This document shows, one piece after another, positions 60,068 through 63,293 of a stretch of DNA of 64,000 bases; the stretch's first letter is position 1, and each line of letters opens with the position of its first letter. A program made the translations under genes and the position numbers. The notes below the pieces were generated by a model. It was not told the DNA's origin. It ran no database searches and saw nothing but the letters and a program-made list of their open reading frames with translations. Source of the DNA: Acidobacteriota bacterium. GTDB taxonomy: Bacteria; Acidobacteriota; Vicinamibacteria; Vicinamibacterales; JAFNAJ01. The DNA lies in contig JAHDVP010000012.1 in assembly GCA_023384575.1 (NCBI GenBank), positions 62,001 to 126,000 on the forward strand. Reading direction: 5' to 3'.

Positions 60068-61726
60068 TCAGCGCGGCGCGGACGCGCGGCGGCGGCCGGC
60101 CGGGCTCTTCCTTCGGCTGGCCGGCGTTCGTGGGGGCCGACGCGGCGCCAGGGCGGCCACGGGAGGTGAGGCGGACAGGTCGGCCGGCAGCGGGCTCACC
60201 ACCTCGAGGCGCACCGGCTTGCCGAGCACGCGTTCGACCGGCGCCAGATGACGACTCGCCGCCCACATCTCCAGTTCCGCGTCCGCGGTCGTGCGGATTC
60301 TCAGGAGCACGTCGTCTCCACGGTCGATGACGTCGAGGCCGGCCACGACCTGGGCGCGGCTGCGGTCGAGGCCCTCGGCCAGCGTGGTGAAGGCGGCGAA
60401 CACGCGCACGGTCTTGCGCGTGGCGGGCCGCAGGCGGCGGAAGCCGTCATGCGACTTCTTCGGCCGACCGCGGCGGTGGTAGCGGGCGACGAGCGCGATC
60501 GTCTCGATCTCGTCGGGCTCGAAACCCCGCAGGTCGCCGTGCTTGATCAGGTAGTACGAGTGGTCGTGGTGTCCCTCGTAGCTGATGTGGACCCCGACGT
60601 CGTGCAGCAGGGCGCCGAACTCGAGCCACTCGCGCTCCCGATCGCCGAGCCCGTGAAGATGGCGGGTCTGGTCGAAGAGGGCCAGGGCGAGCCGGGCCAC
60701 CTGCTGGGGGTGCGCCGACCAGTAGTTGCAGCGCTCGCCGAGTTCGACGACGCTGCGGCGTCGGATGTCGGGGTACCGATCGATCTTGACGATGTGCGAC
60801 TGGTGCCGGCGGATGTAGTCGAGCACCAGGCCCTCGCGCAGCGCCAGATCGCAGAGCGTGAGCTCCTCGGCGCCGAGCAGCCGCAGGATCGTGTCGAGCA
60901 GGATGGCGCCGCCCACGACGATGTCGGCGCGCCGCGGATCGAGCCCCGGCATCTCGAGCCGCTCGCGCTGGTCCATGGCGACGAGCCGCTTCCTGACGCG
61001 CCGAAGCGCCTTGGTCGAGACGCGGAGATTGCGGACGTCGGTGGGCACACTGCCGGTGGCCTCGAGGGCCGCGAGCGCCCCGAGGCTGAGGACGGTGCCC
61101 GACGTGCCGATCACCCGCGCGAAGCCCCGTTTGACGATCTGCGCGACGTGCCCTCCGACCTGCCGTTCGACGTACTTCACGAGGCGGCGCTCGTCACGCG
61201 TCGACAACGGATCGCTGCGCACGAAGCGCTCCGTGAGCCGGATGACGCCAGCCTTGAAGCTGCGGGCGAGCTCGGGCTCTCGGGCCGGGCCGCAGGTGAT
61301 CTCGACGCTGCCGCCGCCGATGTCGATCACCACGCCGGTGCCGTCGTTCAGGTCGACACCGTATCCCGCCGCGACGTGGATCAGGCGGGCCTCGTCCGCA
61401 CCGGAGATGACCCGCGCCCGGATGCCGGTCTGGCTGGCGATGGCCGCGAGGAAGTCGCCCCCGTTCTCTGCCTCGCGGGTCGCGCTCGTCGCGCCCGCGA
61501 CGATCTCGTCGACCTCATGCGAATCAGCCAGCCGTCTGAACTTCGACAGCGCCTGCAGGGCCGCGGTCATGGCCGTGTCGGTGAGGCGTCGTCCGTCGAG
61601 CCCGCCGGCGCCGAGACGGACCATCTCCTTCTCGCGATCGATGACCTCGAACGAGAGATCGGGCCGGACCCGGACGATGATCATGTGCACCGAGTTGGTG
61701 CCGATGTCGACGGCGGCGAGGCGCAT
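60068..61726 (-). CDS. Exopolyphosphatase / pppGpp phosphohydrolase (Ppx/GppA) with HD domain
   Basis: A 552-residue enzyme. The ASKHA-type Ppx/GppA domain (1-310) begins [20 protein letters not shown], with the second motif [12 protein letters not shown]. An HD-type C-terminal domain (about 320-490, [20 protein letters not shown]) and a basic Pro/Arg tail follow. It hydrolyses polyphosphate or pppGpp. The ATG at 61726 is preceded by GGGAGA; an upstream ATG at 61792 would place the palindrome inside the gene. It is divergent from the CHAD and SixA genes, all linked to polyphosphate or phospho-histidine handling. Confidence 0.93.
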
Positions 61727-61771
61727 GCGGGTCTCCCGGGCGCGGTCGCTGGAAACCGCTAAGTGCCCGTT

Positions 61772-61793
61772 CGTGTTACGATTACGTAACACG
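61772..61793. promoter_or_regulatory. Perfect 22-bp palindrome between divergent ppx and CHAD genes
   Basis: CGTGTTACG and CGTAACACG are exact reverse complements flanking ATTA. The dyad is 46 bp upstream of the ppx ATG and 29 bp upstream of the CHAD ATG, an operator position able to control both directions. Confidence 0.6.
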
Positions 61794-61821
61794 TGGCTCT
61801 GGAAGCCGCGCCGATCCTATC

Positions 61822-62742
61822 ATGAGCGTGTCACCGCTGGCTGGCGTTCTCGGAGTGCGTCTCGAGGCGCTCGCCGAGCACCTTCCCGCGGCGCTCGAGG
61901 GCGACGTCACGGGGGTGCACCAGGCGCGCGTCGCCTCGCGTCGCCTGCGCGAGGCCGTGCCGGTTGCCGGTGCGGCCCTGCGTCCGGGACGGGTGCGAAG
62001 GGCCGCGCGACGGCTCCGGCGCGTGACCACGTGGCTCGGGCCGGTCCGCGAGCTCGATGTGACCCTGGGCCTCATCGCGCGGCTCGCCGCGCAGCGCCCC
62101 GACCTCGGCGATGCGCTCGAGGTCGTACGGGCGCGCGTGGCCGGCGCCCGCGAGCTGCACCGGGCGCGTCTCGTTTCGCGCCTCGACGCGGACGCGGCGA
62201 AGCAGCTCATCGCCCGGATGGAGCGATTCGCCGCGCGCGCGGTGGCCGCCGCCGACCAGGACGCATGGCGGATCTCGCTCGCCGGGCGCGTCGAAACGCG
62301 CGCCGGCGTGCTGCGGCGGTGTGTCGAAGAGGCTGGGCTGCTCTACGATTCGCACCGCCTGCACGAGGTGCGCATCGCCGCCAAGAAGCTGCGCTACGCG
62401 CTCGAGCTCGCGGGCGAATCGCACCTCACGGCCACGGCGCGACTGCTGTCGCGACTCAAGCGCGTGCAGGACACGCTCGGCGATCTCCACGACCTGGAGA
62501 TCCTCGACGCGTTCGCGCAGGCCGCGTCGGCCGTGCCCGACGCCGAGGCCGCGCGCGACACGCTGGCCACGCTGCGCGATCACCTGCAGGCGGAGTGCCG
62601 GCGCCTCCACGCCAAGTTCCTCGGCGCCCGATCGAAGCTCGTGGCGGTGGCCGACCAGGCGCGCGATCGCGTGGCCCTGCGCGTCGTCGTGCCGATCGAT
62701 GCGGCGACCGCCGCCCGGCCCGCCGACGGGGAACGGCCATGA
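61822..62742 (+). CDS. CHAD domain protein
   Basis: A 306-residue protein made almost wholly of the conserved histidine alpha-helical domain. It has two four-helix repeats, with HQARVASRRLREA in the first and HEVRIAAKKLRYALEL plus LKRVQDTLGDLHDLEIL in the second. CHAD proteins bind polyphosphate through basic and histidine-lined grooves. Its position opposite a Ppx/GppA hydrolase gene and 4-bp overlap with sixA fits polyphosphate metabolism. Confidence 0.94.
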   Translation: MSVSPLAGVLGVRLEALAEHLPAALEGDVTGVHQARVASRRLREAVPVAGAALRPGRVRRAARRLRRVTTWLGPVRELDVTLGLIARLAAQRPDLGDALEVVRARVAGARELHRARLVSRLDADAAKQLIARMERFAARAVAAADQDAWRISLAGRVETRAGVLRRCVEEAGLLYDSHRLHEVRIAAKKLRYALELAGESHLTATARLLSRLKRVQDTLGDLHDLEILDAFAQAASAVPDAEAARDTLATLRDHLQAECRRLHAKFLGARSKLVAVADQARDRVALRVVVPIDAATAARPADGERP

Positions 62743-63293
62743 GCGCCGCGGCGGGGTCGGCCCGGCGGGCGACGCCCGCCTCGCCGGTGCGCGTGGTGCT
62801 CGTCCGGCACGGCATCGCCGCGGAGCGCGGCGCCGCGTACCCGGACGATTCGACGCGGCCCCTGACGGCCAGGGGCGCGGAGCGGGTACGCGAGGTGGCC
62901 CGCGGCCTCGTCGCGATCGGCGTCGACGCCGACGAGATCCTGACCAGTCCCTTCGTGCGGACCAGGCAGACCGCCGACCTGATCGCCGAGGCGTTCACCC
63001 CGCGGCCGAAGGTGACCAACGTGCACGCCCTGGCCGTGGGCGGGCGGGCCACCGCCGTGGTCGACTACCTGTCGAAGCTGGCGCGCCGCCGGAGCGTGAT
63101 CCTCGTCGGGCATGCGCCGCTCATCGGCGAGGTCGCCGCGAAGCTCGTCGGGGCGCGACGCGCGATTGAATTCCGGAAAGGGGCCGCGTGTTGTGTCGAA
63201 CTCGACGCGCTGCCACCAACTCGCGGCGGCGCGCTCCGGTGGTTCCTGCCGCCCCGGGTGCTGCGCCTCGTCGGCGCGTCCGCACCGAAGTGA
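62739..63293 (+). CDS. Phosphohistidine phosphatase SixA-like
   Basis: A 184-residue histidine-phosphatase-superfamily enzyme. The catalytic motif is RHG (VVLVRHGIAAERG), with TSPFVRTRQTADLI and the second catalytic His in ILVGHAPLIGEVA. It could remove phosphate from phosphohistidine proteins or polyphosphate-derived substrates. The start overlaps the CHAD gene stop codon (ATGA). Confidence 0.93.
   Translation: MSAAAGSARRATPASPVRVVLVRHGIAAERGAAYPDDSTRPLTARGAERVREVARGLVAIGVDADEILTSPFVRTRQTADLIAEAFTPRPKVTNVHALAVGGRATAVVDYLSKLARRRSVILVGHAPLIGEVAAKLVGARRAIEFRKGAACCVELDALPPTRGGALRWFLPPRVLRLVGASAPK

What the first reader, a model, noticed from the sequence alone, without database searches (positions are those of the whole stretch)
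60068..63293. Polyphosphate/phosphohistidine island on both sides of a perfect 22-bp palindrome
A Ppx/GppA-HD protein is divergent from a CHAD protein overlapping a SixA phosphatase. The only strong signal in the 95-bp gap is CGTGTTACG-ATTA-CGTAACACG, which could gate both directions. This suggests a dedicated, switchable polyphosphate or stringent-signal turnover unit.
Basis: partly seen in the sequence, partly recalled or inferred. Interest (0 to 1): 0.55.

Follow-up and report, generated by a model that had tools for sequence, protein, structure and literature searches.

The report
Phosphate-control site between polyphosphate genes
The palindrome between a polyphosphate-degrading gene and a polyphosphate-binding gene in an Acidobacterium looks like the DNA site at which bacteria switch genes when phosphate runs short, so this pair is probably one more part of the ordinary phosphate-starvation response, with a site that may serve both directions.

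Summary
In detail: ppx (60068-61726, minus) faces CHAD-sixA (61822-63293, plus; ATGA overlap) across a 95-bp gap with a perfect 9-4-9 inverted repeat at 61772-61793. As an inverted repeat it is not rare (17 places in this window carry one), is unique in its genome, and is absent from the 26 orthologous gaps compared. Read as an 11-bp direct repeat it matches a Pho box: a matrix trained only on pst/phoU promoters of other Vicinamibacterales genomes scores it 20.0 (toward ppx) and 16.4 (toward CHAD); the next best place in 64 kb scores 6.2, and 150 simulated windows gave none at 20. Non-palindromic boxes sit in the same gap in a sister clade; phoU lies within 12 kb of CHAD in 24 of 50 genomes; in two relatives ppx runs into pstSCAB. 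Best reading: a PhoB-type site gating polyphosphate turnover, possibly in both directions. Against: three same-family gaps lack it, the own pst promoter (contig edge) has no strong box, no -10 fits canonically, and perfect symmetry is rarer than Pho boxes alone would give. Gene cluster and regulon are known kinds; I found no Pho box in print for this phylum. No binding or expression was tested.

The parts
60068..61726 (-). ppx: Ppx/GppA-family exopolyphosphatase, 552 aa, with domain III/HD part
   Evidence: PF02541 3.9e-61, PF21447 4.9e-26, HD 7.8e-07; best solved relative exopolyphosphatase 8jgo 1.7e-56, 1u6z 3.5e-41
61727..61821 (.). 95-bp divergent gap
61772..61793 (.). perfect 9-4-9 inverted repeat CGTGTTACG-ATTA-CGTAACACG
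61773..61790 (-). Pho-box match toward ppx: GTTACGT-AATC-GTAACAC, score 20.0
   Evidence: matrix from pst/phoU promoters of other genomes
61775..61792 (+). Pho-box match toward CHAD-sixA: GTTACGA-TTAC-GTAACAC, score 16.4
61814..61822 (-). extended -10-like TGATAGGAT, proposed ppx promoter overlapping the CHAD start codon
   Evidence: pattern ATnnTAnCA at the CHAD start in 28 of 56 gaps, 0 in 2670 other gap positions
61774..61782 (+). extended -10-like TGTTACGAT inside the palindrome, weak candidate for the CHAD-ward promoter
   Evidence: sequence reading only; CHAD-ward -10-like hexamers in 36 of 56 gaps against 11 on the opposite strand; the consensus scan found no sigma-70 site here
61822..62742 (+). 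CHAD (polyphosphate-binding, phosin-type) protein, 306 aa
   Evidence: PF05235 6e-34; solved CHAD 6qv7 1.8e-08
62739..63293 (+). sixA-type phosphohistidine phosphatase, 184 aa, ATGA overlap with CHAD
   Evidence: TIGR00249 94.4 bits, cut-off 74.5; E. coli SixA 1ujb 4.9e-13

Best explanation
The palindrome is a PhoB-type box (two 7-bp units of the kind GTWACRC with an 11-bp period) placed between ppx and CHAD-sixA. Most likely working: when phosphate is short, a PhoR/PhoB-type two-component system binds the site and raises ppx and CHAD-sixA; CHAD docks on polyphosphate granules and Ppx frees phosphate from them; SixA acts on an unknown phosphohistidine target. Shown here: the genes, the motif match, conservation of the divergent pair, linkage to pst/phoU, Pho boxes in the same gap of a sister clade. 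Inferred: protein binding, its sign (activation rather than repression), two-way use, and the biochemical roles.
For: Matrix trained on 28 distinct pst/phoU sites of other genomes: palindrome 20.0 and 16.4, next best in 64 kb 6.2, training median 20.5; none of 150 simulated windows reaches 20. Consensus at 12 of 14 or better on the plus strand at spacing 11: 18 of 28 pstS loci, 11 of 30 phoU loci, 6 of 56 gaps; at the other spacings from 7 to 18 at most 1, except 7 of 28 pstS loci at spacing 16; reversed consensus 0 at spacing 11. Other gaps with boxes: L069 21.8, L083 21.3, L086 17.8, L093 17.1, L054 14.7, clustered beside the window on the Ppx tree (7 labelled of 56 rows, L087 at 12.5 included; 4 changes, shuffled mean 6.8, 0 of 500 as low). 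Same family: box before a phoB-like gene (G002), before DUF47-Pit (G003), before phoU-pst (G001). Own genome: this is one of the top three places by matrix among the 23 pattern hits; two PhoB-like regulators, one 3.3 kb beyond the window end with a 13.7-score box. Precedents: ppk and ppx in the PhoB-dependent set of B. fragilis (PMC3547664, passages); ppk-CHAD operon under PhoP in Streptomyces (PMC8003754, abstract and passages).
Against: The three same-family gaps lack a box (L053 1.7, L040 -0.2, L065 -14.5), and 50 of 55 other gaps score below 14.6. In the own genome the loose pattern gives 23 hits against 13 for the backward control, the own phoU-pst promoter, 146 bp from a contig edge, scores only 8.1, and no strong box lies close to the better phoB copy on C50. 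Perfect symmetry (8 of 8 pairs) arises in 24 of 20000 random re-pairings of Pho-box halves. The window box lacks the third and fourth 11-bp repeats and the TACGCT -10 of the pst promoters. If ppx uses the conserved -10 at 61814-61822, the box lies downstream of its start, where binding could repress. The consensus was first noticed partly in sister-clade gaps.
Confidence: 0.7

Rival explanations
1. The palindrome is the operator of an unrelated dimeric regulator (TetR-like or similar) encoded elsewhere, and its likeness to a Pho box is coincidence.
For: Perfect 9-bp arms are the usual form of a dimer operator; ordinary Pho boxes pair at only 3.8 of 8 positions on the same axis.
Against: Only 2e-4 to 4e-4 of random 9-4-9 repeats reach 16.4 and 3e-5 to 7e-5 reach 20 on the Pho matrix; no regulator gene adjoins the gap; the site is unique in the genome; the same gap holds non-palindromic Pho boxes in the sister clade.
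Confidence: 0.15
2. No regulator: the palindrome is a chance repeat lying over ordinary divergent promoters, which are the only widely conserved elements of the gap.
For: 17 places with such repeats in the window; no conservation of the palindrome in 26 other gaps; conserved promoter-like elements in the gaps.
Against: The Pho-matrix score is 14 bits above anything else in 64 kb and unmatched in 150 simulated windows.
Confidence: 0.12
3. The unit is mainly a (p)ppGpp turnover module, the Ppx/GppA protein acting on pppGpp.
For: Guanosine pentaphosphate phosphohydrolases are among the solved relatives, 6pbz 2.7e-38.
Against: Exopolyphosphatases match better (8jgo 1.7e-56); the partner CHAD and the pst/phoU linkage point to polyphosphate and phosphate. 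No assay can be made here.
Confidence: 0.08

Closest known systems
Pho box of PhoB/PhoP regulons (E. coli CTGTCAT repeats from recall; PolR of Microlunatus GTTCACnnnnnGTTCaC, PMC6754071, passages seen)
   Same: Direct repeat with 11-bp period upstream of pstS, phoU, phoB-like and Pit genes
   Different: Unit here is (G/T)T(A/T)ACAC; the window copy is also a perfect inverted repeat and matches on both strands
PPX, CHAD and SixA gene neighbourhood of biomining archaea (PMC10892726, section 3.4 and Figure 2 legend seen)
   Same: Same three families in one neighbourhood
   Different: Here ppx is divergent from CHAD-sixA, in Acidobacteriota, between citrate synthase and glgC
ppk-pptA(CHAD) operon of Streptomyces lividans under PhoP (PMC8003754, abstract and passages seen)
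   Same: CHAD gene under phosphate two-component control
   Different: Partners there are ppk and a nudix gene, one direction only, tested by experiment

Membership tests
Pho box (PhoB binding site) | Direct repeat of a 7-bp unit with 4-bp spacer | tested here: met
   5 of 7 and 7 of 7 unit matches on each strand at 11-bp spacing; score 20.0
Pho box (PhoB binding site) | Motif shared with phosphate genes of the organism's kin | tested here: met
   18 of 28 pstS and 11 of 30 phoU loci of kin
Pho box (PhoB binding site) | Motif shared with phosphate genes of the same genome | tested here: inconclusive
   own pst promoter at a contig edge only 8.1; 13.7-score box before a PhoB-like gene
Pho box (PhoB binding site) | Conserved position upstream of orthologues | tested here: inconclusive
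   5 of 55 other gaps score 14.6 or more, clustered in a sister clade; three same-family gaps do not
Pho box (PhoB binding site) | Bound by phosphorylated PhoB | not testable with these tools
   needs footprint or ChIP
Exopolyphosphatase (Ppx/GppA family) | Ppx-GppA domain in full | tested here: met
   PF02541 positions 2-285 of 285; the NCBIfam cut-offs for PPX or GppA were not reached, so substrate is open
CHAD proteins (phosins) | Full CHAD domain | tested here: met
   PF05235 5-227 of 228; aligned to solved CHAD 6qv7; granule binding not tested
SixA | SixA model above cut-off, RHG motif and second histidine | tested here: met
   TIGR00249 94.4 over 74.5 bits; LVRHG and VGHAP aligned to 1ujb and 3f2i; catalytic role of these residues from recall

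The most novel reading that the evidence does not exclude
A two-way Pho box: one perfectly symmetric PhoB site offering the same proximal unit GTAACAC to both strands, so that a single bound PhoB array drives (or on one side blocks) both the polyphosphate-degrading enzyme and the polyphosphate-docking protein, in a phylum for which no Pho box turned up in my paper searches.
Probability: 0.35. Interest if true: 0.55.

Novelty: new member of a known kind. Interest (0 to 1): 0.42.

Why it matters
It gives a testable Pho-box definition for an order of mostly uncultured Acidobacteriota and ties polyphosphate breakdown and a CHAD protein to phosphate starvation there. No paper of the held library has 'Pho box', 'Acidobacteria' and 'PhoB' together; a wider search (Pho regulon, Acidobacteri, PhoB) gave 23 papers, of which I saw the 10 listed titles and abstract beginnings.

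Tried and rejected
Conservation of the palindrome as such: rejected. With a free spacer and up to 2 mismatches it occurs in 4 of 120 genomes, the own one included, while the backward control occurs in 6 of 120. De novo motif search in 1.5-kb pstS upstream regions returned only conserved coding sequence; the matrix was therefore built from consensus hits, one per locus. A strict pattern TTWACAC-N4-TTWACAC at 1 mismatch found the element in 3 of 10 genomes only. Sigma-70 and terminator scans found nothing in the gap. A -10 at canonical spacing from the window box could not be named. Simple self-complementarity as the full cause of the symmetry: not enough. A matrix scan of the whole own genome was not made; only the 23 pattern hits and the fetched stretches were scored.

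Full report
What is there. The window end holds, on the minus strand, citrate synthase, a YacG-like protein and ppx, then a 95-bp gap, then CHAD and sixA on the plus strand, then glgC on the minus strand. The palindrome is at 61772-61793. The listed ppx start at 61792 is a mechanical one; orthologues start at the residue of the ATG at 61726.

The arrangement is old and ordinary in its order. CHAD is found in 77 of 120 relatives. Of the 30 loci fetched from that search (the own one included), 27 have ppx divergent beside CHAD and 23 have sixA within the flank. Of 80 named loci found with Ppx, 55 gave a usable gap with a divergent CHAD within 400 bp; the 25 others include loci cut by contig ends, some Acidobacteriota without CHAD there, and Nitrospira and other distant loci. 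Names such as Luteitalea, Vicinamibacteraceae and Vicinamibacterales place the group.

The palindrome is not conserved as a palindrome. It is unique in the genome at up to 3 mismatches, found in no other of 396 genomes of the phylum, and absent from 26 other gaps. Such repeats are common in the window: 17 places. What recurs in gaps are two promoter-like elements: ATnnTAnCA over the CHAD start (28 of 56 gaps, 0 elsewhere in 2670 positions), which on the other strand is an extended -10 toward ppx, and CHAD-ward -10-like hexamers (36 of 56; 11 on the opposite strand).

An 11-bp direct repeat. In four gaps [TC]TAC recurs at 11 bp; of the other spacings from 5 to 23 only one gap shows it, at 6; 0 of 200 shuffle sets reach 4. 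The same repeat lies before pstS in relatives. In the 28 pstS and 30 phoU loci that I scanned, drawn from searches of 80 relatives, the consensus appears on the plus strand in 18 and 11 at spacing 11; at other spacings the counts are 0 or 1, apart from 7 of 28 pstS loci at spacing 16, which I did not follow up. The pst promoters carry four such repeats followed by TACGCT. This is the layout of a Pho box, doubled.

The window site. A matrix from 28 of these sites, the window not among them, gives the palindrome 20.0 toward ppx and 16.4 toward CHAD; the next place in the 64 kb has 6.2. 150 simulated windows gave 2 sites at 16.4 and none at 20. In the own genome the consensus at up to 2 mismatches gives 23 hits against 13 for the control, but by matrix only three places exceed 17: this one, one on C17 and one on C23. 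I scored only those pattern hits, not the whole genome. The other two adjoin an aspartyl protease/AIM24 pair and a DUF2490/M14 peptidase pair, not classical phosphate genes.

Neighbourhood. In G475 and G477 ppx overlaps the start of pstSCAB. In 19 of 51 named loci with enough sequence a Pho box stands at the ppx end; some of these sites also served in training through the same genomes. In the own genome pst lies on another contig behind a PhoU-LMWPc fusion at a contig edge, and its promoter scores only 8.1. A PhoB-like regulator lies 3.3 kb beyond the window's right end with a 13.7-score box before it; boxes also precede its counterparts in G001 and G475. Its best model is PhoB, below the equivalog cut-off.

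Symmetry. GTWAC can pair with its own reverse complement, so Pho boxes pair at 3.8 of 8 positions against 2.2 for background; full pairing comes up in 24 of 20000 random re-pairings. The symmetry is therefore partly but not fully explained, and a two-way box or another regulator remains open. Random 9-4-9 repeats reach the window's scores in 3e-5 to 4e-4 of cases.

Mechanism. I hold it most likely that a PhoB-type regulator binds here in phosphate shortage and raises both sides, by analogy with PhoB-dependent ppk and ppx in B. fragilis (PMC3547664, passages) and PhoP-dependent CHAD in Streptomyces (PMC8003754, abstract and passages). CHAD domains bind polyphosphate (PMC6537752, abstract start and passages). 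The sign of control is inference: if ppx uses the conserved -10 at 61814-61822, the box lies downstream of its start and could repress.

Noticed in passing
L180-L239 upstream regions (unnamed relatives): pst and phoU promoters of Vicinamibacterales carry four 11-bp repeats (TTAACRC, GTAACAC, GAAAC, GAAACAC) followed by TACGCT, a longer array than the classical two-unit Pho box.
   Followed up: partly
L175:5450-10578 and L176:5940-11932: ppx overlaps pstS and heads a ppx-pstSCAB(-phoU) run in two relatives.
   Followed up: yes
L170:147-1250 (own genome, contig C42): PhoU fused to a low-molecular-weight phosphatase domain heads the own pst operon.
   Followed up: no
L270:2853-2872 and L271:2881-2900 (own genome, C17 and C23): The two other best Pho-box places of the own genome lie by an aspartyl protease or AIM24 gene and by DUF2490 or an M14 peptidase; a box also lies near an M14 peptidase in G001.
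   Followed up: partly
window 61814-61822 and 27 other gaps: A conserved ATnnTAnCA covers the CHAD start codon and reads as an extended -10 on the opposite strand.
   Followed up: partly
pstS upstream regions, spacing 16: 7 of 28 pstS loci also show the units at 16-bp spacing, unexplained.
   Followed up: no
L047, L078, L079, L083, L087: Genomes labelled Gemmatimonadetes, Acidimicrobiia or Cyanobacteria carry this type of ppx block and group among the Acidobacteriota rows, probably mislabelled bins.
   Followed up: no
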